From assembly GCA_020055645.1 (NCBI GenBank), contig CM034546.1, forward strand, positions 124,641,875 through 124,705,874: DNA of 64,000 bases. The letters are read 5' to 3'. Positions 1,960 to 62,700 of this stretch are shown piece after piece. The notes under the pieces are model-generated. The model did not search any database. It was not told where the DNA came from and saw only the letters and a list, made by a program, of their open reading frames with translations. Numbering within the stretch: position 1 is the first letter of the stretch; every line of letters starts with the position of its first letter. The stretch comes from Tomocerus qinae (Eukaryota > Arthropoda > Collembola > Entomobryomorpha > Tomoceridae). The position numbers and the translations under genes are program-made.

Positions 1960-4900
1960 ATGGGGAAAGATTTAAAATTAAATATATTTGCAGCCCTGTC
2001 TGTAAAATTTCAGCGAATATTTTTCCTTCCAATTTTGTATACAATGATTGCATCTCTTGGAGTGATTACAAGCGTTTGGAGAAGAGGTACAGGATTTTGT
2101 TCCTTAACTCACATGTACAGATTTGTACAATTTTTTTCTTATTTACAGTATTTCTTTTTATTTTCTCCACAGGTGACATGCATCTGGACGCTAAAGTAGA
2201 CGCAAATCGAGAGAAAGATTTTGAGACGTATGATTTTATAATTGGTAACTACTTTACCTTTCTTCTTTTTTTAGAAATTCATATTTAAACTTTTGTGAAA
2301 TAAATTACTCTGATAGTTATTCTATTTATAATAGCTATAAAATGTTTTTGACTGTATCATAAGCTGAAAGTGAACAGAAGTACGCCAATCTACAAACTAT
2401 TTTTAACCATTAAACATTAAATTCTAATTTTCCTTGCAACTGATGTCCATTAAAATAGGACGAAAGAGACAAAATGTGAATATCATTAAATTTTAATTGC
2501 TATATTTATTATTATGCTATTCCACTTAACTTTCCAACTTGTGTTATTTTTTAAGCGCAATAAATACCTAATACTTTCTAGTGTAATATCTAGATAAATG
2601 CATTGTTATAATTTTATATTTTAAATATAAACACTGTTCTATTTGATCTCAGTGGGAGCTGGCTCTGCTGGATGTCTAGTTGCCAATAGATTGTCATTTA
2701 ACTACAATGTTCTACTACTTGAAGCTGGTGGATCTCCTAACCCGCTCCAGGTATTCGTTGATATCATTTTTCATAATTTTTAACTTATATTTTGAAGAAG
2801 GGTTTTTAGGTTTTTAATTTCTTTCTAAAGGAAAAAAAAAGCTTTTTGTAATAATTATTAACCTATATTTAAAAAGTACCAATGTTATCAAAGTTGGACG
2901 TGTTTTCTATATTTCTTTCTTTTTAGTCGATCCCCGGCCTTGGATTTTTTTTGTTTGGCTACCCAGACATTGATTGGAATCACCGAAGTGTACCTCAAAC
3001 AGGGGGAAGTCTCATGTCCGTCAATCAGGTTTAATAAAATTATGCAACTATCTTAACTTTTTGAAGGATTCACGCCCCTGTGCATCTTATAAGTGAAGTA
3101 GGTATGTATAAATGTATTTAATGGGGCTACAGGGTCACGGTTAGCAATATTATTAGTACAGTTGGCTCTATATATAATGCGGTATGCAAAGGTCTTTTAG
3201 CCTTTTACTGACACTGTATAGTCATTCCTTGTAGATGAGAATTCCTAAACAAACATGAATTTAATAGAACAGAAAACACCGAAACATACCTCAAATTAAA
3301 AGAATCCATATTCAATGGACTATGAGCGTTATATGCTTATTTATGTAGGTACCTTGCACACGAGACCAAATATCCATAAAACAAATACAGGAAAGTAATA
3401 AAATTAAATTACATGCCAATCATATAAGCTTCAAGCGTGTCAAATTGGTTTCATCGTTGAAATATTTATTTATTGCTATGGACTATGCAATAAATCTTTA
3501 CCATCATTTTATTCCTTTCATCCTGTACCTTTAATAATATTATAGAAACATTGTTCTTTGAATGTAATTGTTACACATTATATGTGTCAGATCTGTATCT
3601 CAATGTTAAAATAGAGAGAAACAGAATTTATAGAAACAATATATGTGCACTCAATTTGTACAAGTATCTATATAAAGGTTCCAGGTGTGTTATTTGAATA
3701 GATTTTATTTTTGTAGGTGATTAATATCTAGTTTTATTGTATTAATATAGCAATCAAGTTGGTCAGCAGGGAAAGGATTAGGTAAGTATTATTAATTTCT
3801 AATATTTTTATGTAAACATATTTATGCAAGATAAATGCTTGTGCATAATCATGTAAGATAGCTGCTATTTATGTAAGATACAATAATAGAATGTATCTAT
3901 CAGCATTTACAATCATCTAAAATAATTGTTTATTTTACAGGTGGCTCAGGTAGACGACTTTATTATGATAATTTGCAACTTTTGACGTACGGCTGATGAT
4001 GAGGTAAATTTTACAACTTTTTTTGAAAACCATTTCAGGCAGTTTAAACCTAATGCTGTATTTAAGAGGTAATTGTTCAATGTTAATTTTATTTCCTTAT
4101 TAACTGTTATACTTTCAGCTTGATTTGTAGATGGATAAAATATGTTTTTATTTGAACACAAAAAAATTCATAAAAAATTATAAATATTTTACACATTTAA
4201 TTGGTTTTTAGGCATTTAAAATGTAATATACGGGAACTTCCAATATAATTTTCCTGTTTTCTCCTTCGTAAATCTAAATCTTTAGCTGTCCTAATTTTCC
4301 ACACGAAGGGAACCAAATGGGAAGCTTTGCACTTATATTATGACTTCTTTTTAATTAACCAGTAGTTTAAATGAATGAGCCTTTAAATTAAAATGTAGTA
4401 TACTGCAGAAATATGATACTTTAAATTAAATGATATTTTCAGTAAATCATTTCTTTAAACATATGAATTATCTTTACGTATAAAGGAATCAACCTTTACC
4501 AATAAAACAATTAGCCATTAGTCAATTTTTATTGAATGTAGTAGTATGGCTGACATGTATTCGTAAGTATTGCAGAAATGTATTGGCAGGTAATAATCAG
4601 ATGTCGGAATTTTATTTATATAAACTTTTTTCAGACTTAACTGAGAGTCGATTTTGTATCTCGACATTTCATAAGGATATCAAAGATATAAATATGTTAG
4701 AAATTTTTTTTAATTTGTGACTTCAAAAAATCTAAATTTTTTGTAAACATTTTTAAATAAAAAATTACGCAAAATTTTTCGAGTAAAAAAATCTTTAGAA
4801 AATAAAATAATTTGTCCATTTTCAGATTTCAAATGACTATTATTCTATTTTGTTCGATAAATAAACGTGATCCAACTTTGACTTCTTGGTAATCGTACAT

Positions 4901-48305: not shown

Positions 48306-49063
48306 ATGGAAGTAGAAGACTCAGGTGGTGGTCCACGTCCAAAAGTAGATGGTTTCGATTCAAGTTTTCGTTGGGTTCCGACAAATATCGACGACTTGCC
48401 TGATAAAATTTCCCTATGCAAAGATGAGATGGGCAGATTGATTAACCACGTGTTTTTACCCCGAAAGCTGCCTCAGTCACAATTGCTAGATCAGACAGCA
48501 TCGGACGAATCCAAACTACTCGCAATGATGACAGAAACTGTAAAAACATTTCAAAAGAATATTCCAGAAATTCTACCGACTTCAACTGTCCGGATGTTTA
48601 ATACTTGGGATTCTTTGCAATGCTATGATCATCTGGATGAAAATGATGTTCAGAAATCGATTGATTTTTTGGAAGCAGGTGATATGCTGGCTTTATACAT
48701 TCGCAAGCAAAACTTTGGCCTTTTACTGTCTTCGTCGAAAGAAATTGGGAATAGTAAAAGAATATTTTTATCGACATTTGCTGCATCTTTGTCTAACGAA
48801 AGAGTCACTAAATCATCGGGAGACTTGGAAGTAACTTTTCCGCACCAGTCAATTCACATTCCAATGTCCCAAATTCTGACCTCTCTTGCCTTTGCAAAAC
48901 AACTAGCTACGCTACACAATACCGATTTTGAAAAGGCCATGGCCGAAACTAGAAAAGCTGGATTGAGTCTTAGCAATTGTCGAGATGTGGCCGATACAAT
49001 TTTTGTTTCAGAATGGCTGGCGGCTACTTTAGCTGATAAGTACTCTGCAAATTGTTCGTTTGA
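48306..49063 (+). pseudogene. N-terminal part of a DUF3638/DUF3645-family giant protein, cut by a transposon
   Basis: 252 codons are open from the ATG to the insertion at 49063; the frame then runs into the element and stops. MGRLINHVFLPRKLPQ, GDMLALYIRKQNFGLLL, FPHQSIHIPMSQILTS and AGLSLSNCRDVADTIFVSEW follow the order and spacing of the N-terminus of very large (about 3000-residue) fungal and oomycete proteins with DUF3638 and DUF3645 further on. Fungal members often carry the name ubiquitin hydrolase without proof. No intron is needed here, unlike neighbouring host genes. Removing the element with one copy of GTTTGA rejoins NCSFEEFPKIVKKVRDEV in frame. Being rare in animals, the gene may have come from a fungus-like donor. 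Confidence 0.65.
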
Positions 49064-49174
49064 TATGAGGGGAGATTAGTCGCAAAAATAAATCCGGGGT
49101 TTCTTTATGAAATCCTTAAAAAACAACGTATTTCATAAACTGTTCAGTTACATTCCTGGCAGGAATTTCAGGCA

Positions 49175-49444
49175 GCAATGCAGGCAGCATTAGCAATGCA
49201 GGCAGCATTAGCAATGCAGGCAGCATTAGCAATGCAGGCAGCATTAGCAATGCAGGCAGCATTAGCAATGCAGGCAGCATTAGCAATGCAGGCAGCATTA
49301 GCAATGCAGGCAGCATTAGCAATGCAGGCAGCATTAGCAATGCAGGCAGCATTAGCAATGCAGGCAGCATTAGCAATGCAGGCAGCATTATCAATGCAGG
49401 CAGCATTATCAATGCAGGCAGCATTAGCAATGCAGGCAGCATTA
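49175..49444. repeat. 18-bp tandem array, 15 copies (left TIR)
   Basis: The unit is GCAATGCAGGCAGCATTA; two units start with T instead of G. Because 18 is divisible by three, long frames of MQAALA and NAACIA type arise on both strands; they are not genes. The right TIR has ten copies. Confidence 0.9.
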
Positions 49445-50025
49445 GGATTCATCCAGCATTAGGATTCATCCAGCATTAGAAAGCTGCCAGCATTAGGATG
49501 CTGCCAGCATTAGGATGCTGCCAGCATTAGGATGCTGCCAGCATTAGGATGCTGCCAGCATTAGGATGCTGCCAGCATTAGAAAGCTGCCAGCATTAGAA
49601 AGCTGCCAGCATTAGGATGCTGCCTGCATTAGGATGCTGCCTGCATTAGGATGCTGCCTGCATTAGAAAGCTGCCAGCATTAGAAAGCTGCCAGCATTAG
49701 GATGCTGCCTGCATTAGGATGCTGCCTGCATTAGAAAGCTGCCAGCATTAGAAAGCTGCCAGCATTAGGATGCTGCCTGCATTAGGATGCTGCCTGCATT
49801 AGAAAGCTGCCAGCATTAGGATGCTGCCAGCATTAGAAAGCTGCCTGCATTAGAAAGCTGCCAGCATTAGGATGACGCCAGCATTAAGAAGCTGCCTGCA
49901 TTAAGATGCTGCCAGCATTAGAAAGCTGCCAGCATTAGGATGCTGCCTGCATTAGGATGCTGCCTGCATTAGGATGCTGCCTGCATTAGGATGCTGCCTG
50001 CATTAGCATTCATACAGCATTACCG
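49445..50025. repeat. 17-bp tandem array, about 33 copies (left TIR)
   Basis: Units AGCATTAGGATGCTGCC and AGCATTAGAAAGCTGCC alternate irregularly. They are related to the neighbouring 18-bp unit through GCAGCATTA. Mirrored at about 58890-59461. Confidence 0.85.
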
Positions 50026-50033
50026 TGTAGGAA

Positions 50034-50103
50034 GGAATAGAGGAGTTTAACAGCGTACCCCATTGCATGTGCATTGGGGTACATTGTTAAACTACTCTAT
50101 TCC
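50034..50103. repeat. 70-bp hairpin in the left TIR
   Basis: GGAATAGAGGAGTTTAACAG at one side pairs with CTGT/TTGTTAAACTACTCTATTCC at the other, with GTACCCCA and TGGGGTAC and a central TGCATGTGCA. Only a few mismatches. The mirror copy in the right TIR is 58803-58872. Confidence 0.85.
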
Positions 50104-50479
50104 TGCCAGCATTGTAAAATCCTGCCAGCATTGTACGAATGCAGGCAGCATTAGCGTGAATGAATACTGTATTATGGCTGGGTACATATGTTTGTCTGTT
50201 TGTCCACCCCTCAAGAAACATTGGAATTTCTATTAACATCTGGGCCAGTGTAATACAGACTAGTAGTTACTCAAAATGTTACGTTAGTTTAGTGGACCAG
50301 CACATATTCAGCAACAGAATGTGACAATAGTTTTAGGAATCAATTCATAGTACTTCTGAATGTATGCACTAAATAAAATTCAATTATTTATTGTCTTACG
50401 TAAGACAGTAACTCTAACAATAATATTTTTAGATTATATACTATACTATTTAACTTATATACTATACCTATACTGTATA

Positions 50480-50765
50480 TATACTCATATACCTATACAC
50501 TTAATATATACTCATATACCTATACACTTAATATATACTCATATACCTATACACTTAATATATACTCATATACCTATACACTTAATATATACTCATATAC
50601 CTATATACTTAATATATACTCATATACCTATATAGTTAATATATACTCATATACCTATATACTTAATATATACTCATATACCTATATACTTAATATATAC
50701 TCATATACCTATATACTTAATATATACTCATGTACCTATATACTTAATATATACTCATATACTCA
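50480..50765. repeat. 27-bp AT-rich tandem array (left TIR)
   Basis: The unit contains TACTCATATACCTATACACT then TAATATA, about ten copies. The mirrored array in the right TIR (about 58010-58405) is longer, with about fourteen copies. Confidence 0.85.
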
Positions 50766-51203
50766 TATAACTATATATATGTGGTATCGATAGGGAGATC
50801 AAACGATATCAGTATCCCTACCCCTAGGTATACAAAAATGACCCTCAAATAGTAGCGGGATGACAGCTAGTATTTATTTGATAATGATGGCTATACTATA
50901 ATATGCCTTTGTACTACAGCAATACCAATTCGCGGGAAGGCGTAAATCTGTGGTCATTATTTATCTTGGTCATCGTCAGTATTCATAGTCATCTCAGAAA
51001 TCTATTTCACCAGTTAAAGGTGATTTATCAATTAGTTTTTTTGAAAAAATATTGGAAATAGCAAATTTTTGATTAATGTGACTTAAGGTTGAAGTAAGTA
51101 GGTAACGTCTATCAGTTTTGAAATTCTCCATTACAGCTTAAATCTATTATTAGTACACAGAATCTAAAACCTATTGAATGACGTCATTCATTCAGTATAT
51201 TAA

Positions 51204-52936
51204 ATGTCACTATATTTTTCTCAAGTCAGCAGAACGATGGAAGCGAATTTTAAAGACGAAGTTCATCAAACCCTTAATAACTGTCAAATGGTATTGCAGC
51301 AAGAGATAACTTGTGATTCGCTTTGCTATACCATTTCCAAACTAGAATTAACTCTGGAGGCGATACACCAATATGCAGATCTGAATGAGATTTCTTGGCT
51401 CAATGTTATTATATTTGTGGAAGAAGCTGTCGAAATATTGAACACGGAAGTTACGTGCTTAGAAGTAAGGAACAGAGGGCGACCAAAGATACAAATTCCT
51501 TGTGAAAACATTGAGTACTTGTTAAGTTTAAACTTTCACGTACCGCAAATCGCAAAACTATTTGGAGTTTCTCGCGACACAATATTTCGACGTCTAAGTG
51601 AAAATGGGATTTCCGTAAGTCGTCGCTAATACAAATATCCATTAATGATTGTTCTGTGAATGACGTCATTCATTTTTCTCTCAGGTTGCTCATTCTTATT
51701 CTGACATTTCTTTTGAGGAATTACAAAATCAAATTTATTCAATACTGTTGCAATTTCCCAACACCGGCTACAAGCGAATGAAAGGATTTCTTCTTAATAG
51801 AGGAATAAAATGCACAGATGAAAGAGTAAGACAGGGAATGCGATCCGTTGACCCTGATAGTGTCATTTTAAGAAGTCAAAACCGTGCTATTGTTCGTCGA
51901 GTATACTTTGTTAGATATAGCAACGAGATGTGGCATTTGGACACAAACATGAAATTAATACGGTATGTTACAATAAAATTGAGTTTGAGTTAAATTCTAT
52001 CAAAAGTCGGAATAAGATTATAATTGAATAAAATGACAGAAACTTTTATTTTTTAAAGGTGGGGAATCGTTATTAGATGTTGCATTGATGGGAAAAGTAG
52101 AACTGTTACTTACTTAGATGCCAGCAATGACAACAAAGCGGACACTAATTTATTATCGTTTATGAGAGGCGTAGAGAAATATGGAATACCGTATAGAACG
52201 AGATCAGACAAAGGGAAGGAGAACATTCTCATAGCAAATTTTATGATTGAGAGGCGAGGAACAATGCGGGGAAGTCACATTTGTGGCCGTTTTAGTGCAC
52301 AATCAAAGGTAGTTAACAAAATTTATTTTATATTTGCTCGACGTCGAGCATAATAAATCAGCTATTGCTTATTATTTCAACAGAATCGAGAGACACTGGA
52401 AAGATGTGACATATGGATGTACCCGATTTTATAAAAATATCTTTAATACATTGGAAGATAACGGAAAATTGAATATTGACAATGAGAAGCATTTGTACAT
52501 ACTTCACAAAGTTTTCTTGCCAAGAATTAATAATCATTTAAAAGTTCTGATGAATGCATGGAACAGTCATCCCATTTCAACCGAAAATAATTTTTCGCCC
52601 CGTCAATTAATGCTTTTACATCTGCCACCTAATGGAATGGTTCTCGATATCACAGATGTATATACTCCTGCGTCATAATTCTGGTATCCACCCATATAAA
52701 TTACATGTTTTAACAGTAACAACTTGTTTTTGTAGGATGATCGGATCAATATTGATTTTCTGTGCAACAACTTGTCGGATCTACAAAACTTTGATGATGA
52801 TGAACTAACAAACCCCCTCCTCCCAGAGCCATCAGTTAATCCTATTTTGCAAAGTTACTTAGCCAACCTCAACCATAACCGAGTATCCAATAATTTTGGT
52901 GTAGATGTGTTTTTGCAAGCCTTACAGCTGTTATAA
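51204..52936 (+). CDS. IS3EU-like DDE integrase/transposase of the large transposon
   Basis: Five exons: 51204-51614, 51685-51962, 52059-52308, about 52383-52657, 52736-52936. Exon 1 is helical and ends in a helix-turn-helix (NIEYLLSLNFHVPQIAKLFG then VSRDTIFRRLSENGIS). The catalytic core has MWHLDTNMKLIRWGIVI (first Asp), RTRSDKGKENILIANFM (second Asp) and VHNQRIERHW (Glu), with CIDGKSRTVTYLDASNDN between. This is the metazoan integrase-core family that resembles bacterial IS3 enzymes. The last exon is acidic (QNFDDDELTNPLLPEPSVNP). In this copy the frame slips once near a T-run at about 52285-52295, between HICGR and VHNQRIE, so it probably gives no active enzyme. Introns 1 and 3 contain the 16-bp palindromes. 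Confidence 0.75.
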
Positions 52937-52965
52937 TAAATATTGATTTTTTGATTTTTATTTAT

Positions 52966-53060
52966 TTCAAATAAATGCTAGACAATTATGAATGACGTCA
53001 TTCAGTGGAAATTATTTTTATTATAATAATGGCGTGGAAAATCTTTTAATCTATGTTTCT
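52966..53060. repeat. Segment duplicated in inverse at the inner end of the right TIR
   Basis: AAATAAATGCTAGACAA, TGAATGACGTCATTCA and TTTTTATTATAATAATGG then GTGGAAAATCTTTTAATCTA recur as reverse complement at about 57428-57524. The right TIR is therefore longer inside than the left, by a copy of the DNA that follows the integrase gene. Confidence 0.75.
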
Positions 53061-53285
53061 ACATAATATGTAGTTAAAGATGAAACCAAATATTGAAATT
53101 CAATAGGAGTGCTAGTTTATTACAATAAATTTAATACTTTTCTTTTCAATTTCCTCTTAATAGTAATTGTAACCTCTCATAACATTTACAAAATTTGATT
53201 TAATTAAGTAATTTATTTTTTCAAGCTATCAGGCAGTATTCAAGCTATGGTAGACATTTTCCTGTTTTGATTCGCTCACTTACTT

Positions 53286-55685
53286 TTACGGAGCTCCAAA
53301 CCCTTCTGAAGCATAAGTTACAGCCATTCTTACTTGTTGTAAAATTTGTTCTTTAGTTAGTAGTGACGGAATAGACAACTGACTGAAGCAAGTTTGAACT
53401 TTTAAAAAACCTTCTCCATTTACGACTGTAACACGTAGTTCTGAGTCCATGAGAAGAGGCCATCCTGTCCAACAGGACAATAAGTTCTTTATTCCATTTA
53501 GTTCTAGGGAAAAAATGTTTTTTGTTATAATATTGCCATGAAAATATGTATATTATGTTTGTTTTACGTAAAACATATTAATGTCCCAAAATTCCCACCT
53601 CCTTCATATCGCTGAACGCTCTCAATTACTGCTTCCAACACATGTTGGTTGACCCCTTCCTCGTCCACAAACTTTATTTTTGAGGCCACTAAATCAGCAC
53701 TTATATTAAAGTCGCTCTCTCTTACAAACACCTCCGTGATTAGATGGATTAGATTCTTTTATCGATGACATTATGGTACATTATTGCCTCCTTGGCAATT
53801 GAAGCATTCACCTTCGTAATGGGAACATTAAACCCAGAGTGACGTGCCAACCGTCGTATTTGCTCTTTCATATCGTCTGAAGGTTCAGTGGTTACCCAGT
53901 CACCCATCTAAAAGAAGTATTATTGCACATAACTGGAGACTGACTGTCTTACGTAAGACAAAATATATAGCAGAATCAGTTTAGACTACTTAAGGCATTT
54001 AAAATTCTTCGCTGGTCATAGTCTGGTATGTCGCTAATTGTCATGGGAAAACTGGTGTCATGAGTTATTTTACTCTCTGTTAAGTACGCAACAACCGCTG
54101 AAGAGAGTCCAATTAACGATATTCCCGAGTGGAGGCAACAATAACCGATAATTTTTCCTATTGTATAGTAAATTCCATCGCGGAGTAAGACAGTATCAGC
54201 GCATGGAACCTTATGATCTGAGGGACCTTCAAATAGCGGAAGACAGTTGTATCGATCGTTAATTATAGAGTTCATTGACTTCCAAAAAACTCCCTTGACA
54301 ATGCTCCATGCTCCTATGTCATTTCCTATAAAATTGATTTACGTAAATCAGTAAAGCTTGCCCTATCAAATTTTAACAAACAGCTGGTAGAATTTATATA
54401 GCAATATTACCAAGTTCTCCAAGGAAGGCAACTTTTGGTTTTTGTAGAAAATTGAAAGTTGGGTTCTTAAACAATTCAAACAGTTGACAAAGCCATTCCT
54501 CTCGCTGCATAACTATTAGTTGCTCTCCTGGATTTTCACGGTACGCTTCGTTTCTCAAATCAGTTATACCAAGTAACACTGTGAAATAGTTCAATATTAG
54601 GATATACATATTTAAGAAGTTTCGTTATAATGATATTAGGATACAATGCTAATTTCTCAGTATGTTTACTTACTCATTTCGTCATTAACCTCCGCCGTTT
54701 CTACTAAACTAGTTTCAGAATTGCCAACCACTGCCATTGTTGTCATTGAAGAATTTTCCAAATAAGGTGGAGAACTAAAGCTAGCATTATCATCGCCATT
54801 GGGGGAGCGTACTTCTACAAGCATGTTTTCTGACTCAACATCTGTCGACTAAAGATTTTATATTAATTTTTTACACATTGTAATACATCATTGATGTTTT
54901 ACGTAAAACAATTACCCCGTCTTCAATTTCTACCAATGGTCGTAAATATATCATTCCCACTCTCATAGCGACAAGTTCCTCCGGACACAAGACCTGACGT
55001 CTGGAACATAATCTGGTTAACGGTTTTCCTTGCCCGCCTCCAATAGCTCTTAACATTTCAAATTGATAGCCGGTTAGACGAGGATATTGTTCCTCTATTG
55101 CTTCTACTACTGACTCTAGTGTAGCATTTCTCCCTTAAAACGACAATTAAATATAATTGGGGTCTTTTAAACATTATAAAGTTCAAAAACTTTCTTACAC
55201 AGTGAGATACTGCCGTCGCCGAGCCCTTGATCATTCAAAATGATTCTATGCACATTTTTAGGCGTCACCAATGACGTTGGTTTTCCTAGGCAAAAAAATC
55301 GGAAAGTCTTCATTGTACTGGCTATCTGTGGTGGCTGCGAATTCTGGCCTTGTCTTCTTGTTCGACGTCGAACATTTGCACGATTCTGATATGGTTCAAA
55401 CGATCGACGTAGTTCTGATAGCACAGTACCTCAGTCATCCCTGCCGTTTCCTGTTAATTTGTTAATAAACAAGCATAATTGTAATTGATAAATGAATGCA
55501 ATAGATTTATGCTGTAAATTGAACATACGGTTAGGACTCATTGCAATGGCCTCTCCAACTGGTACCCTTGACGGCGTAGTATCTTCACCAGTCAGTCGTA
55601 CAGAATTGGAGCTATTGTTGAGAATGTCAGCAGCTTGCACAATTAACTGGACAGCTCTTTGAATACCTGTATCGTTATTTGACAT
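53286..55685 (-). CDS. HECT-type E3 ubiquitin ligase-like gene of the large transposon
   Basis: Eight minus-strand exons: 55529-55685, 55199-55450, 54916-55133, 54674-54848, 54411-54578, 53990-54325, 53599-53907, 53286-53503. The N-terminal part has an Arg-rich ANVRRRTRRQ, then FRFFCLGKPTSL, YPRLTGYQFEMLRAIGG and MRVGMIYLRPLVEIEDG, a pattern I associate with HECT genes of fish and invertebrate repeats. The HECT part follows: KPKVAFLGELG|NDIGAWSIVKGVFW, GKIIGYCCLHSGISLIGLSS, and the C-lobe CWTGWPLL...VQTCFSQLSIPSLLT with the TCF cysteine that would carry ubiquitin, ending EGFGAP. Damage in this copy: an in-frame TGA at 55431-55433 and at least one frame slip in exon 7, whose entry phase also disagrees. 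The family is intact enough to name, but this copy is probably inactive. Confidence 0.65.
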
Positions 55686-57483
55686 AATACTGCCTAATTA
55701 TTCAAATAACAAAAACGATTAGGATCAGTTTAGGCTTCTAAGGCTGAACGTATCACTTGTTAGTGACAAACAACACCTGTATTCCAACTCTATATTATAC
55801 ACTAGCAATCCGCGCATTACTCGTCGGTCGAAGGAGGCAGCGGCAGAGTACAGCACAGATTGTAGAACTATGCAAACCAACAGTACCGTATTTAGAAGTC
55901 GATTTCGGAGGGGGCAATGATGTCATACACTTTTATATGTTTTAGGCATTATCACGCGAAACGCAGAAAGTTTTGGCTTATTTCGTCCAACATGAGTCGA
56001 AAACAGCCTAAAAACACAAAATCGCGCGATTTTTTTTGGTATTTTGAGAAATTTTTTTCCCTTTTCTTGGATTTCGGGGGGGGGGCATTTGCTGTGCTGC
56101 TGCGGGCTGTTAGCACGATAACTTCAAAACGGAGATGTACAATATCATGAGATTAGAAGTTCGCTCGAAAGGTTATTTGTTAGGTCAAGTCAAGGTCAAG
56201 TCACACGTGTAAAATGGTCAAAGGTCATTGGAAAAATTCACTAAAAACGTCGATAGCTCAAAAACGGTTTGAGATAATTAACTCAAACTTACTATGCGTG
56301 ATGTAGGGATGAAAAGCAATGTGGAGTTTGAAAATGAAATAAATCAGACCTACCCCTGCCAAATCTACCCCCTGCCTGTGGGCGTGGTCCAAAAATTAGT
56401 GTAATTTTAGTTATTGACATTGTAGAACGTCATATATAACTCGTTCGAAATTTTTTTTCGTTAGGCCATGTCAAGGTCAAGTCACACGTGTCAAAAGGTC
56501 AAAGTTCATTGAAAAAATTCACTAAAAACGTCATGTAACGTCAGATAATTAGTTCAATCTTTTTATGCCATTCCACACCACCTTTTTACATCCATTTGGA
56601 CATGGTTTATTATTTCGCTAGGCCCCCACAGTACTAATTATGAATTTTAAAATGATTACGCATATATTAAGGTTCAGGGGTGGTTCAAAACACGGGGAAA
56701 TTCAATGAGGGGCAGGTTTTTGGGAAGTATCTATGGTATGGCTACGATTTAAAAATGCAGTCATAGAAATTTACTTTATGATGTTTTTTTGAAAACTTGA
56801 ATCTAGTCCTAGAATATGGTCGTAGAAAGACAAAATTAGTCTCTAAAAACGCAGAAAATGTCAATTTATAACGAATTGCACTTTGATTCCTAATTTTTAC
56901 CTCTGGTTACAGGATATAATTGTTTTCATGGAAAATTTGCAATAACTCGCCATGAAAGACAAAAATTAAGAATCTAAAGTGCAAACTGCTATAAATTGGT
57001 GCAAAAAACGTCAACGTTTTATAACAACTGAAACCGATCACTTTTTTGGAATTTGATTTTTTAACGCATTTAAAGCAACGATATCAAAAATCCATCCGCC
57101 CATGTTTTCCTCGATAGTCCAGGATTCCAAAAATGTAAGTCTCATAAAAGTCGGCCGTAATCTTCGGGAGGAATAAAGCTTTATGTAAAGCATTTTTTAA
57201 CACGCATTTAGATAGGCCCATGCGGTTGCTATGCAGGCGTGATGAGCAACCTTAATCCTTCGGGAGTAATTAGGCCAAAAACTTTAGGCGTACTTGATGT
57301 CTATGAGTGGAAAGAAGACAACAAATTTGTAGTTTTATTTGGTTTCATTTCGAAACATTCTAATATCTCAAAGTGTTGTTTTATGCAATATACATCCCAT
57401 TAGCGTTTGTGAATTTTGACTTTACATACCACATAGATTAAAAGATTTTCCACTCCATTATTATAATAAAAACAATTTCTACT
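55686..57483. other. Non-coding region of the transposon with nested repeats
   Basis: The first part should hold the HECT gene promoter. About 56160-56610 is the repeat family also found at 24425-24810 (GGTCAAGTCAAGGTCAAGTC type). About 56780-57060 is a foldback: AATTTATAACGAATTGCACT and TTCCTAATTTTT recur inverted at 56955-57000. 56030-56090 has T and G runs. No gene seen. Confidence 0.55.
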
Positions 57484-59752
57484 TGAATGACGTCATTCAT
57501 TGTTGTCTAGCATTTATTTACAATTGCAGCTATTTATAGTAAAGGTGTATTAAATAAAAAGTTTTCAATATTTATTATAAGAGATTCTGTGTACTAATAA
57601 TAGTTTTAAGCTGTAATAGTGAATTTCAAAAATCAGATATAAATATAGTTATTACGAATCTAATAAACGTTGGCTACTGACTTCAACCTTAAGTCACATT
57701 AATCAAAAATTTGCTATTTCCAATATTTTTTCAAAAATACTAATTGATAAATCACCTTTAACTGGTAAAATAGATTTCTGAGATGACTATGAATACTGAC
57801 GATGACCAAGATAAATAATGACCACAGATTTACGCCTTCCCGCGAATTGGTATTGCTGTAGTACAAAGGCATATTATAGTATAGCCATCATTATCAAATA
57901 AATACTAGCTGTCATCCCGCTACTATTTGAGGGTCATTTTTGTATACCTAGGGGTAGGGATACTGATATCGTTTGATCTCCCTATCGATACCACATATAT
58001 ATAGTTATATGAGTATATGAGTATATATTAAGTATATAGGTATATGAGTATATATTAAGTATATAGGTATATGAGTATATATTAAGTATATAGGTATATG
58101 AGTTTATATTAACTATATAGGTATATGAGTATATATTAACTATATAGGTATATGAGTATATATTAAGTATATAGGTATATGAGTATATATTAAGTATATA
58201 GGTATATGAGTATATATTAAGTGTATAGATATATGAGTATATATTAAGTGTATAGGTATATGAGTATATATTAAGTGTATAGATATATGAGTATATATTA
58301 AGTGTATAGATATATGAGTATATATTAAGTGTATAGGTATATGAGTATATATTAAGTGTATAGGTATATGAGTATATATTAAGTGTATAGGTATATGAGT
58401 ATATATACAGTAGAAGTAGTAGTAGTTAAATAGTATAGTATATAATCTAAAAATATTATTGTTAGAGTTACAGTCTTACGTAAGACAATAAATAATTGAA
58501 TTTTATTTAGTGCATACATTCAGAAGTACTATGAAATTATGAATTGATTCCTAAAACTATTGTCACATTCCGTTGCTGAATATGTGCTGGTCCACTAAAC
58601 TAACGTAACATTTTGAGTAACTACTAGTCTGTATTACACTGGCCCAGATGTTAATAGAAATTCCAATGTTTCTTGAGGGGTGGACAAACAGACAAACATA
58701 TGTACCCAGCCATAATACAGTATTCATTCACGCTAATGCTGCCTGCATTCGTACAATGCTGGCAGGATTTTACAATGCTGGCAGGATTTTACAATGCTGG
58801 CAGGAATAGAGTAGTTTAACAATGTACCCCAATGCACATGCAATGGGGTACGCTGTTAAACTCCTCTATTCCTTCCTACACGGTAATGCTGTATGAATGC
58901 TAATGCAGGCAGCATCCTAATGCAGGCAGCTTTCTAATGCTGGCAGCTTTCTAATGCAGGCAGCATCCTAATGCAGGCAGCATCCTAATGCAGGCAGCAT
59001 CCTAATGCAGGCAGCATCCTAATGCTGGCAGCTTTCTAATGCTGGCAGCATCTTAATGCTGGCAGCTTCTTAATGCTGGCGTCATCCTAATGCTGGCAGC
59101 TTTCTAATGCAGGCAGCTTTCTAATGCAGGCAGCTTTCTAATGCTGGCAGCATCCTAATGCTGGCAGCTTTCTAATGCAGGCAGCATCCTAATGCAGGCA
59201 GCTTTCTAATGCTGGCAGCTTTCTAATGCAGGCAGCATCCTAATGCAGGCAGCATCCTAATGCAGGCAGCATCCTAATGCAGGCAGCATCCTAATGCTGG
59301 CAGCTTTCTAATGCTGGCAGCTTTCTAATGCTGGCAGCATCCTAATGCTGGCAGCATCCTAATGCTGGCAGCATCCTAATGCTGGCAGCATCCTAATGCT
59401 GGCAGCATCCTAATGCTGGCAGCTTTCTAATGCTGGATGAATCCTAATGCTGGATGAATCCTAATGCTGCCTGCATTGCTAATGCTGCCTGCATTGATAA
59501 TGCTGCCTGCATTGATAATGCTGCCTGCATTGATAATGCTGCCTGCATTGATAATGCTGCCTGCATTGCTAATGCTGCCTGCATTGCTAATGCTGCCTGC
59601 ATTGCTAATGCTGCCTGCATTGCTAATGCTGCCTGCATTGCTGCCTGAAATTCCTGCCAGGAATGTAACTGAACAGTTTATGAAATACGTTGTTTTTTAA
59701 GGATTTCATAAAGAAACCCCGGATTTATTTTTGCGACTAATCTCCCCTCATA
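57484..59752. repeat. Right terminal inverted repeat of the large transposon
   Basis: Mirror of the left repeat: 27-bp array about 58010-58405, hairpin 58803-58872, 17-bp array about 58890-59461, 18-bp array 59462-59641 (ten copies), then the unique outer 110 bp. The unique parts are almost identical to the left arm, while array copy numbers differ. Confidence 0.85.
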
Positions 59753-62700
59753 GTTTGAAGAGTTTCCAAAAATAGTCAAAAAGGTAAGAGACGAAGTTTT
59801 ACTGCAAAAAGTCAAAGGCTCGGACACATTGTTCCCGTTTAGAAGATCTGGATTCTGGATGACGATTAAAGCCGCCCTGCAGTTAAACTTGACTCATGAA
59901 TTAGGACTTCGGGATGGCCTCTTTCTGTTCAAGATGATCATGTCCCAACTGATGGCCACAATTTGCCGGTGTTTATTAACACGCACGTATGGAGAACTAG
60001 ACATTGATTTGACAATTCAAATGTAAGCAAAACTTGCTCGCAGGCTTGAAAAACTTGATATGTTAGCTGGAAAGACTACGCATTCATCTTTGCTGACGAT
60101 TCACCAAATACTACATCGAGAAACAGTGAAAATAATTGATAACATCAGAACGAACATTAACACTCAGTACGATTCGAGGTTGGAGATTGACAAGAAAGAA
60201 TGTCAGTTGCAGGGTTTAGGAAAATTAGATTTTGAAAACGACATTTATCACAAAGCCCCCAATTTAAAGACTTACTTAGCTAGAAAAGAAACAAATAATT
60301 ATTCAGGCAATTCAGCTGCTGTTTTTACACCCAAAATATTTGGACGATGTGGACATCAATTTCCATCTGTAAATATCCTACTAGAAATTAACGAAATTTC
60401 TTTGGGGGTTGCGTTGTATGATGTCGAAAACTGGATATTTCAACATCTGGATAATTTTATCTGGGATGCTACTATAATTCGGGATTTAGCATTTGTATAT
60501 TCTGAAAAGGCTACGGAATACTACAAAAATGATCATGTTGGTTATAGCAGAATGGTACTGACTTTCTTGAAAATCATCAAAGCTTTAGACTCTAAGGCTG
60601 TAGAAAAATATCCTTTGTTAAATGACCACAGAACTGGAGTAAATACAGAAATCATCAGCCATCTGCTTTTACCTAAAAGAAAAGATTTGGAATATGCTCA
60701 TCAATTCGAAGAATATTTTAATACCAGAAACAAAAACAAAATGTACCCTTCTCTGGTAGAAGAAGATCATGTTACGGAAAAATCATTTTCAGGGAGATAT
60801 GCAGAGGGAAATGAAGAAATGTGCAAAAAAAGAGATGAAATTTTGACAATCGCAGCACAAAAAGTCAGAGAAAAAGAAGCGGAAGTGGAGAGACTGCGAG
60901 AAAGAGTTGCTGTTTTGAAACTGGAGCTAATTGGAATGGAATGCGAATACATCTCCAGATATAATCGACGATGGAAGACTTACAAACAAGTTCATTCGTA
61001 CGGTTGTACAAAATGTGCAAAAGAAAAGGAAAAAAATGGTTGCCGGGTTGAAGTCTATGAATATCCCTTGAGAGACGAAAAGTACAATCAAAATGCCGTT
61101 GTTTTTGAATTGCTCATACCGGTTGAAATCGCCTGTCTTCGAGACGTTCTTTACGTATTCTCGGCTGAAATCTGCCAGTCCTCCTTAACTTCCACATATA
61201 GTTGTGCAAATTGGAACGATAATCCTCAGTTGAGTCGTTATCATCGTGGGCAACAGCAAAAAACCTTCCTTGGAAGCTCAAATCGTTCTTTTAGTAGTAC
61301 TCATTTTAGCATGTGCCACGTGGACTCTTCAAATAGCCAAATTATTCTACGGAACAATGGCAGCTGCACCTTTTACGGAAATCATAAAAAGAGTAACACC
61401 AAATTGCAAAGTATTAAAAGATTTTGTACATTGCAAGTAGAATCCGGCTCACAGTACAAAGGACTGCAATGGGCAGTGGACGGTACAAGTCATTCTCAGA
61501 ACAAAGTTCTGACCAGTCAGAACGAGTGTCCGGAATCCTTAACTTTGACCGAATGGATTGAATTTGGTTCTTTGAGGTCGGGAAATAGGCTTCAGATTCG
61601 AAATATTTATATGGCAATAGAAAATGGACGCCTGACCTTCAAAAACGAATCAGTATTAATGCTAATTCTTCAAGCTCTATGGGAAGGAGGCGCCAATTCC
61701 GATTTTGTCTGGTCCCGAGATGCTCATGTAGACTTTGCTGACGATACCAGATTCTGCGAACAATTTAGTAACATCTTGGATAAATTTTTGAACACTCAAA
61801 AGAACAATTGGAAGCAACCGTACAATTTACTGACTATTATTATGATTACCATTCGTGTGTTGGAAATTAATTCAGATAGCTCGATCGTCGAACCTTTCAC
61901 GAATCTGTTGATTAAATGTCGAAATATCGCTGTGGAATGGATATCTTGCATTGAGGATGTGATGAAATTATCCAGTAATTTTGATCATTGCGAGAAGTTA
62001 AGAGACAATCTAGTCAATGTCGGAATCTGTTGCGCTCTTACATTTAATGTCGACCCAAATCTGCCATGCTTTTCCAAGATTCTAAATTACGAAAATGACG
62101 GTCTAAGAATTTGGATTTTGGCCCTGGTGAAAATTGATAACAATATCACTGTAAGCGAGCATAAAGATGTTAAACCTCAGAAACAATCCATTTACGACGA
62201 CGACGACTACATGTATTCACCATTTTCCCAAAAAATTTCCAGAGGATCATCATTTACGAGAAGAAACTTTCTGAGAATGATACGAAACACTGGCATTAAA
62301 ATAGAAGGAAGACTAAAGGAAATAATTAACGCCGAAAGTTTCAAGAGTTTTAATGTTTTGGCCAGGGAATACTTTTCTGCTGATCAGAATGATACGGATC
62401 GTTGGGAAGCACATGGTACAGTATTCTGTAAGCGAACAAAAGACAGAAATCAAATAGACAGACTTATTCAAGTGGATTTACTCCAAGGTAAATTTCTTGT
62501 TGATAATTTACCAGTGTCAAGACTCCCAGGAGCAATCGTCTCCAGTGAAGTCTTTCAAGAGTCTTTGGAAAAACAGTCCTTGAAGTTCAGCCTTTTGGAA
62601 ACGACTCGTTTCGATCTATTAACAAATTTAATGGCTGCAAATATTTATTCCGAGCGACTGATACGGTTATAATAACAGAAGAACGTCCAGACGGTCATTC

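What the first reader, a model, noticed from the sequence alone, without database searches (positions are those of the whole stretch)
50392..58486. Twelve 16-bp palindromes of one design, TGNNNNACGTNNNNCA, confined to one transposon
Six different arm sequences (AATG, TCTT, TTTT, ATTT, CTCG, TTCG) are each kept self-complementary around a fixed ACGT core with TG and CA outer ends. By a hand estimate at this base composition, about 0.3 perfect 16-bp palindromes of any kind are expected in 10.7 kb. Twelve occur here, two being TIR mirrors, and I saw none of this form elsewhere in the window. Six are in introns of both element genes (integrase introns 1 and 3; HECT introns 3, 5, 6, 7). Varying arms with strict symmetry argue for a selected fold or a dyad-binding protein with a loose arm code, or for tiny palindromic insertions. 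TGACGTCA and TTACGTAA cores could also recruit host bZIP factors.
Basis: partly seen in the sequence, partly recalled or inferred. Interest (0 to 1): 0.9.

Follow-up and report, generated by a model that had tools for sequence, protein, structure and literature searches.

The report
Paired 16-bp sites tiling unrelated transposons
Short mirror-image DNA sites with varying but matched arms are tiled every half kilobase or so through a jumping gene, and the same kind of site tiles an unrelated class of jumping genes in the same animal genome, which points to a shared and so far unidentified reader.

Summary
In detail: 11 perfect 16-bp palindromes TGNNNNACGTNNNNCA, plus one with a broken outer base, lie in a 10,689-bp IS3EU/GingerRoot-type DNA transposon. 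None lies in the other 53 kb of the window; the genome average is one pattern match per 124 kb. The six arm sequences are all self-matched. The ten left-hand sites are evenly spaced (385-783 bp, p about 6e-5). The sites are intact in two near-identical copies and conserved above background in two of three diverged copies.

They are not confined to this transposon. A second IS3EU family carries three such sites. Loci from three BEL/Pao LTR-retrotransposon families carry them too, mostly inside coding sequence; one copy has 10 sites plus a near-site, 467-799 bp apart. Between two BEL families the TG/ACGT/CA letters are kept in 27 of 32 compared positions and arm letters in 16 of 32, with one clearly compensated arm pair.

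Best reading: DNA-level dyad sites read by a factor not specific to one transposon. Neither the factor nor the function is known; anti-silencing or protection is my guess. RNA or ssDNA hairpins are the main rival. Only one genome could be searched, and several listings were truncated.

The parts
49064..59752 (.). IS3EU/GingerRoot-type DNA transposon, 10,689 bp, TATGAGGGGAGATTAG...CTAATCTCCCCTCATA
   Evidence: Mirror ends and 6-bp flanks GTTTGA; two further near-identical copies
49058..49063 (.). left target site duplication GTTTGA
59753..59758 (.). right target site duplication GTTTGA
51237..52936 (+). integrase gene; exons by eye about 51237-51614, 51685-51962, 52059-52308, 52384-52657, 52736-52936 (their sum is not a multiple of 3, see Noticed in passing)
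   Evidence: Pfam rva_4 PF24764 E 3.4e-65 on the spliced reading; closest homologue from Allacma fusca, 52% identity over 76% of the query; splice dinucleotides checked
53286..55697 (-). HECT-domain gene, several exons
   Evidence: Pfam HECT E 3.7e-5 on 53286-53552 and a sub-cut-off match (E 0.02) on 53976-54338
50392..50407 (.). site TGTCTTACGTAAGACA, left TIR
51175..51190 (.). site TGAATGACGTCATTCA, starts 62 bp before the integrase ATG
   Evidence: intact in C1_83M and C7, absent as a unit in C1_19M
51657..51672 (.). site TGAATGACGTCATTCA, integrase intron 1
   Evidence: family 2 has TGCCTAACGTATGGCA in the same intron
52335..52350 (.). site TGCTCGACGTCGAGCA, integrase intron 3
52989..53004 (.). 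site TGAATGACGTCATTCA, between the two genes
53560..53575 (.). site TGTTTTACGTAAAACA, HECT intron
53945..53960 (.). site TGTCTTACGTAAGACA, HECT intron
54335..54350 (.). site TGATTTACGTAAATCA, HECT intron
54895..54910 (.). site TGTTTTACGTAAAACA, HECT intron
55359..55374 (.). site TGTTCGACGTCGAACA, inside a HECT-gene open frame taken as exon
57484..57499 (.). site TGAATGACGTCATTCA, in an inverted copy of 52969-53056
58472..58487 (.). twelfth site, AGTCTTACGTAAGACA: right-TIR mirror of 50392 with its outer T changed to A in this copy
56135..57162 (.). nested abundant repeat that explains about half of the site-free gap
   Evidence: 3,568 candidates in the first look, 40 scored

Best explanation
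The palindromes are cis-acting sites kept at the DNA level. SHOWN: a frame TG ab cd ACGT d'c'b'a' CA in which TG, ACGT and CA are fixed and the outer arm bases a, b vary but are nearly always complementary to their partners. SHOWN: in the window element and in one BEL/Pao copy the sites tile the whole element at about 0.4-0.8 kb, through TIRs, introns and coding sequence. SHOWN: the frame occurs clustered in two IS3EU families and in loci of three BEL/Pao families of this genome. INFERRED: a trans-acting reader that is not specific to one element, most likely host-encoded, binds each site as a symmetric dimer or as a base-paired hairpin/cruciform. INFERRED: the even tiling lets the bound complex act over the whole element, so that most of it lies within about 0.4 kb of a site. 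GUESSED (about 1 in 5): the role is anti-silencing or protective, formally like VANC proteins on VANDAL transposons.
For: Density: 11 in 10.7 kb against 0.086 expected, Poisson 4.5e-20; BEL A copy L052 has 10 in about 6.8 kb; family 2 has 3 in 1.34 kb. The first 15 genome matches listed have no second match in their 3-kb loci and none is a palindrome. Spacing: window left ten CV 0.245, p 6e-5; all 12 with the nested repeat taken out of the arithmetic CV 0.365, p 4e-4; L052 with near-site 3185 CV 0.175, 0 of 400,000 simulations, without it p 0.0015. Arms: six window arm types all self-matched, 2.5e-8 under independent arms. Sites not preselected by a pattern: both outer bases complementary in 3 of 3 family-2 sites, 5 of 5 BEL A sites and 1 of 3 BEL B sites, base a in all 11. 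Background: outer pair symmetric in 4 of 45 distinct matches. Conservation: 0 of 96 and 0 of 33 site letters changed in C1_83M and C7 against 224 of 3,659 and 230 of 1,337 outside, p 0.0025 and 0.0021. BEL A versus B, all four comparable A sites: fixed letters 27 of 32 kept, arm letters 16 of 32, p 0.0035. One compensated C-G/T-A pair in gag; one site lost with another about 40 columns away. No shared protein domain was recognised between IS3EU and BEL beyond DDE integrase-type cores.
Against: No reader protein was found. A plain dsDNA dimer with one specificity does not explain why arms vary freely yet must match. In BEL A (7 of 9) and family 2 (3 of 3) the inner pair is swapped, not palindromic. 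C1_19M decays at near-background rate (7 of 130 letters plus one lost site, against 363 of 4,195, p 0.12). BEL B breaks the b pair in 3 of 4 sites. The BEL A site 2427 is not kept in B (4 of 8 fixed letters). Raw genome counts do not exceed the reversed-pattern control overall (2,696 against 4,561; 75 against 203; 72 against 74) but do (46 against 25; 10 against 3; 74 against 39). Only one genome was searched. L049, L052 and L053 were fetched because they matched patterns. The C1:111.66 Mb cluster lies in no identified element; the nested repeat and the MITE have no exact site.
Confidence: 0.5

Rival explanations
1. Structure-read hairpins in RNA or single-stranded DNA: a TGab stem (plus two further pairs) closes a loop holding ACGT, as in dispersed viral packaging signals. 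The stem may vary because only pairing matters.
For: Free but matched arms and a fixed loop are a classic sign. The swapped inner pair of BEL A and family 2 can be read as a bulged base with an N-N* pair (C-G, T-A, G-C) in offset register (sites). Folding gives 6-bp stems with ACGT loops for perfect sites and mostly bulged or 4-bp stems for the others. Dispersed packaging signals with a shared recognition motif are described (PMC6281560, passages).
Against: The stems are weak (-1.2 to -7.8 kcal/mol with RNA parameters). Asymmetric sites lie in both orientations (BEL A 5 and 2, family 2 2 and 1, by eye). The core ACGT is self-complementary, which a loop need not be. IS3EU sites lie in TIRs and in introns of genes on both strands, and no capsid gene was recognised in it. 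Transition-type mismatches (G-T on one strand, A-C on the other) do occur in BEL B and the C1:111.66 Mb sites, so absence of wobble pairs is no strong argument either way.
Confidence: 0.25
2. Mutational origin: tiny palindromic insertions, or hairpin-templated repair that keeps copying one arm onto the other, without function.
For: One whole site is absent in C1_19M. In family 2 one site abuts the HTH exon as an apparent 15-16 bp insertion, though the sequence upstream of it is too diverged to be sure. Arm letters change at least as fast as background between BEL A and B (16 of 32 kept against 70.7%).
Against: TG, ACGT and CA are kept more than arms (27 against 16 of 32); even spacing; BEL sites lie in coding motifs without evident insertion; conservation above background in two diverged copies.
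Confidence: 0.1
3. Host bZIP recruitment: CRE (TGACGTCA) and PAR-type (TTACGTAA) sites drive transcription of the element.
For: The four AATG sites contain TGACGTCA and the six TT-type window sites (58472 included) contain TTACGTAA (core names recalled).
Against: CTCG/TTCG sites and most BEL and family-2 sites have neither core; the constant outer TG and CA are not part of bZIP sites (recalled); even tiling through coding DNA is unlike promoter sites.
Confidence: 0.08
4. Internal binding sites of the IS3EU transposase itself, used in transposition or self-regulation.
For: The integrase N-terminus has HTH matches below their curated cut-offs and a GRPK tract; sites also occur in the TIRs.
Against: A BEL/Pao element with a zinc-binding integrase domain carries the same site frame; the TIR sites lie 1.3 kb from the tips; long tandem arrays in the TIRs are better transposase-site candidates (inference).
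Confidence: 0.05

Closest known systems
VANC21 targets in VANDAL21 transposons of Arabidopsis (PMC5735166; passages read)
   Same: A short motif highly enriched in one TE family, mainly in non-coding regions and introns; the motif differs between related TEs
   Different: VANC motifs are a 9-mer in same-orientation tandem repeats read by a TE-encoded protein; here they are dispersed arm-variable dyads, evenly spaced, in coding DNA of another TE class too
parS centromere-like sites of ParB (TGTTNCACGTGAAACA; PMC7022226, passages)
   Same: 16-bp palindrome of the same frame: parS itself fits TGNNNNACGTNNNNCA
   Different: parS arms are conserved and the sites bacterial; no ParB-like domain among the element ORFs scanned
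Dispersed RNA packaging signals (PMC6281560, passages)
   Same: Many dispersed sites with a shared recognition motif in stem-loops
   Different: RNA-level and capsid-bound; here sites lie in TIRs and introns of a DNA transposon
IS3EU/GingerRoot DNA transposons (PMC10045372, passages)
   Same: TA..TA ends, 6-bp TSD, integrase-type transposase
   Different: No word beginning with 'palindrom' or 'HECT' occurs in that paper's main text; other IS3EU papers were not checked for it

Membership tests
IS3EU/GingerRoot superfamily | TA..TA termini | tested here: met
   TATGAGGGG...CCCCTCATA; criterion from PMC10045372
IS3EU/GingerRoot superfamily | 6-bp target site duplication | tested here: met
   GTTTGA in the window; CAAATG at the C5 copy; not established for the other copies
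IS3EU/GingerRoot superfamily | transposase clusters with IS3EU in a tree | not tested
   Only the Pfam rva_4 match and homologues; no tree built and no Repbase entry at hand
BEL/Pao LTR retrotransposon (L052) | Pao-type pol: RT, Pao peptidase, H2C2 and rve integrase, flanking LTRs | tested here: met
   Peptidase_A17 5.6e-44, RVT_1 4.5e-7, Integrase_H2C2 5.4e-9; rve 6.1e-6 but below its curated cut-off (26.9 against 32.6 bits); 300-bp identical repeats 6,217 bp apart
BEL/Pao LTR retrotransposon (L049, L053) | Pao-type gag and pol | tested here: inconclusive
   Only the gag-region domain DUF1759 was scanned (1e-38 and 8.8e-40) and nucleotide similarity to L052
ParB/parS | 16-bp palindrome TGTTNCACGTGAAACA | tested here: not met
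   Frame fits, but no window site has these arms
ParB/parS | ParB-like protein encoded by the element | tested here: not met
   Pfam scan of the spliced integrase and six HECT-strand pieces shows none; the host genome was not scanned for it
VANC/VANDAL-type anti-silencing | motif arrayed in tandem, same orientation, non-coding | tested here: not met
   Dispersed palindromes 385-783 bp apart, one in an open frame; BEL sites in coding sequence
VANC/VANDAL-type anti-silencing | bound protein causes loss of DNA methylation | not testable with these tools
   No methylation or binding data
bZIP (CRE/PAR) sites | TGACGTCA or TTACGTAA core | tested here: inconclusive
   Present in 10 of 12 window sites, absent from the CTCG and TTCG sites and most BEL sites
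Dispersed packaging signals | sites in a packaged single-strand genome | tested here: not met
   IS3EU sites in TIRs and introns; only integrase and HECT domains recognised

The most novel reading that the evidence does not exclude
Unrelated transposons of one animal genome (a cut-and-paste IS3EU element and BEL/Pao retrotransposons) share a previously undescribed class of cis-element: 16-bp dyads with a fixed TG-ACGT-CA frame whose arms are free in sequence but coupled by complementarity, tiled every 0.4-0.8 kb over the whole element and maintained by turnover. They are read by a common host system that recognises matched or paired arms rather than one arm sequence.
Probability: 0.4. Interest if true: 0.93.

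Novelty: categorically new. Interest (0 to 1): 0.82.

Why it matters
If true, transposons of different classes depend on one shared DNA landmark, spaced like a tiling path. Its reader could be a host factor that TEs exploit to avoid silencing or self-damage, or one that the host uses to mark them. Arm coupling with free arm sequence is an unusual recognition logic in duplex DNA and can be tested directly with oligonucleotides. It would also give a sequence handle for finding such TEs and their control factor. No precedent was seen in the listings of three searches aimed at internal, shared or evenly spaced palindromic TE sites; six other searches served other questions. The library holds open-licence papers only, and listings, not papers, were read for this.

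Tried and rejected
Confined to one transposon: rejected. Compensation between copies of the window's family: not seen; the old copy loses sites by plain decay. Exact periodicity: not tested formally; spacings vary from 385 to 783 bp. The decayed-looking GCAATGATGTCATACA at 55914 sits near the middle of the site-free gap, but a 12-of-16 match is not significant by my own rough estimate and is not counted. The C1:111.66 Mb cluster (L046) shows no similarity to the element, L050, L051 or the C7 copy at its sites and stays unassigned. A viral-contig scan with an alignment of 10 integrases found no relative. The HECT homologue search gave nothing at E <= 1e-3 among the 7,997 candidates scored. Foldseek of the Allacma homologue only confirmed a retroviral-integrase/IstA-type core. 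The pattern TGNNNAACGTNTNNCA gave 334 forward-strand places, listed only for C1 0-56 Mb, with no new cluster of outer-symmetric sites seen by eye. Listings were truncated (50 of 2,696 places, 50 of 75, 50 of 74, 50 of 72), so genome-wide statements beyond searches are limited to the listed parts. My first count of kept letters between BEL A and B (23 of 24 fixed, 11 of 24 arm) used only the three places where both families have a site-like stretch; the count with the lost site 2427 included is the one to use.
Full report
OBSERVATION. A direct scan finds 11 matches of TGNNNNACGTNNNNCA in 64 kb, all 11 perfect palindromes and all inside 50392-57499. The twelfth (58472) has its outermost T changed to A. 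100 shuffled windows give a mean of 0.59 matches, maximum 4. 100 shuffled elements give a mean of 0.37 perfect 16-bp palindromes of any kind, maximum 2, against 12 observed; the twelfth there is AAAATCGCGCGATTTT at 56018, of another design.

THE CARRIER. The element spans 49064-59752 (10,689 bp), with ends TATGAGGGGAGATTAG...CTAATCTCCCCTCATA and flanks GTTTGA on both sides. The two flanks continue one open frame, so it interrupted an ORF (by eye). It carries an integrase matching Pfam rva_4 at 3.4e-65 (spliced by eye) and a HECT-domain gene on the other strand. TA..TA termini and a usual 6-bp TSD are what PMC10045372 gives for IS3EU (passages). The closest integrase homologue is from the springtail Allacma fusca (52% over 76%), so the host is probably a springtail (inference). 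Two further copies differ from the window outside tandem arrays and sites at 6 of 7,886 and 4 of 7,952 aligned positions, so the family moved recently; the C5 copy is flanked by CAAATG on both sides.

COPIES. The two near-identical copies have all 12 sites intact. In the diverged copy C1_83M the 7 of 7 sites found in the alignments are intact (0 of 96 letters changed against 224 of 3,659 outside, p 0.0025). In C7 both sites are intact (0 of 33 against 230 of 1,337, p 0.0021). In C1_19M, of nine alignable positions four are intact, three have one change, one has four changes and one is missing as a unit (7 of 130 letters against 363 of 4,195, p 0.12). No compensating arm change is seen between copies of this family. 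TGAATGACGTCATTCA occurs 19 times in the genome, all inside the six copies (full listing). Of 10 TGNNCGACGTCGNNCA places 8 are in copies (full listing). Of 50 listed of 75 TGNNTTACGTAANNCA places, 17 are palindromes and 15 of these are in copies. Overall the genome has fewer matches than the reversed-pattern control (2,696 against 4,561), so the excess is local, not genome-wide.

SPACING. The ten left-hand sites are 385-783 bp apart, CV 0.245; uniform placement reaches this in 6e-5 of simulations. With all twelve the CV is unremarkable (p 0.11; the minimum spacing gives p 6e-4) because of a 2.1-kb gap, but 56135-57162 in that gap is a nested abundant repeat. Taking its length out gives CV 0.365, p 4e-4. 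This correction was made after seeing the gap.

NOT ONLY THIS TRANSPOSON. A second IS3EU family (two copies, L050/L051, fetched for their integrase exon, not for sites) has three pattern matches each in 1.34 kb, 0.011 expected, all with a symmetric outer pair. One, TGCCTAACGTATGGCA, lies in the same integrase intron as window site 51657, about 35 and 42 bp after the donor (by eye, since the aligner did not align the two sites). L052, fetched because one search listed five clustered hits there, is a BEL/Pao retrotransposon with long open gag and pol frames (Peptidase_A17 5.6e-44, RVT_1, Integrase_H2C2) and 10 matches, two of them LTR copies of one site. Its five sites not preselected by the search pattern are all outer-symmetric, 10 of 10 base pairs, where chance is 0.26 per pair. 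With the near-site 3185 the spacings are 467-799 bp, CV 0.175, reached in 0 of 400,000 simulations; without 3185, p 0.0015. At two other listed places 3185's counterpart reads as a perfect palindrome TGCCAAACGTTTGGCA (C2:47920533, C1:101699499; those loci were not fetched). BEL family B (L049, fetched for one palindrome-like hit) has four matches, and two of its sites recur 594-615 bp apart at ten listed places. BEL family C (L053) has two, and the same pair is listed at five places.

ARM LOGIC. Between BEL A and B (70.7% identical over the main 2.2-kb HSP) four A sites can be compared. Fixed letters are kept in 27 of 32 positions and arm letters in 16 of 32 (p 0.0035); one of the four (2427) is not a site in B. 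The pairing of 4771 follows from a constant offset just past an HSP end. The gag site reads TGCCAAACGTAGGGCA, TGTCCAACGTTGGACA and TGCCAAACGTTGGGCA in families A, B and C: the outer pair C-G in A and C is T-A in B. A B site stands 42 alignment columns from the A site that B lacks. Over 29 sites from five groups (one unassigned), some of them preselected, base a is complementary in 29 and b in 26; the six flanking positions give 4 to 12 of 29. In 45 distinct background matches the outer pair is symmetric in 4, the inner pair palindromic in 2 and swapped in 5, and none is perfect. The inner pair follows a family rule: palindromic in 10 of 10 window contexts (five TT-type ones also fit the swapped rule) and in 3 of 4 BEL B sites, but swapped (NA...N*T or its complement) and not palindromic in 7 of 9 BEL A and 3 of 3 family-2 sites. 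The eight BEL A coding sites tested fall in all three codon phases and overlap conserved motifs, such as CATCH in the integrase zinc-binding region and SDAS of RNase H (motif names recalled), which points to selection on nucleotides.

MECHANISM. Shown: dense, evenly spaced, arm-matched sites with fixed TG/ACGT/CA in two TE classes. Inferred: a shared reader. No domain common to IS3EU and BEL was recognised beyond integrase-type DDE cores, so a host factor is the simpler guess. A duplex dimer explains the self-complementary core and strand indifference but not why arms may vary if matched. A hairpin explains matched free arms and the swapped inner pair (a bulge), but stems are weak, orientations are mixed and IS3EU sites lie in TIRs and introns. 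I put the duplex reading first at 0.5 and the hairpin at 0.25. Even tiling suggests an effect spreading a few hundred bp per site, as VANC-induced hypomethylation spreads over VANDAL21 (PMC5735166, passages); that role is a guess.

LIMITS. The paper library holds only open-licence papers.

Noticed in passing
window 56135-57162: About 1,028 bp of a very abundant repeat (3,568 candidates in the first look) nested between the HECT gene and the right TIR in all three near-identical copies.
   Followed up: partly
window 52969-53056 and 57431-57519: A 90-bp inverted repeat (93%) brackets the HECT cassette, as if the second gene was acquired with its own ends; the C7 copy aligns both repeat copies to one stretch.
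   Followed up: no
window about 52290-52384: My by-eye integrase exons do not add up to a whole number of codons, and the end of exon 3 reads differently from homologues such as P0001, so this copy's integrase may be frame-shifted or the splice sites misjudged.
   Followed up: no
window 49120-50030 and 58870-59660; 50460-50790 and 57990-58430: Long TIRs with 17-, 18- and 27-bp tandem arrays, likely subterminal transposase sites.
   Followed up: no
window 49058-49063 / 59753-59758: The insertion interrupts an open reading frame that continues across the two flanks (NCSF to EEFPK); the 881-aa ORF downstream (60027-62672) has no Pfam match above cut-off.
   Followed up: no
L050, about 2145-2170 and 3490-3510: Family 2 shows an IS3EU-like tip TATGAGGGGATAATGG facing outward into tandem arrays on both sides, an inside-out layout (by eye).
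   Followed up: no
L046 9318-9610: Five sites in 300 bp (TGTATGACGTCATACA twice, TGACCAACGTATGTCA three times), partly in a 154-bp tandem duplication beside a tRNA-like sequence (recognised by eye); element unknown.
   Followed up: partly
C1:83554332: TGTCTGACGTAAGACA, one letter off the TIR palindrome, near the rearranged copy C1_83M and possibly its other TIR.
   Followed up: no
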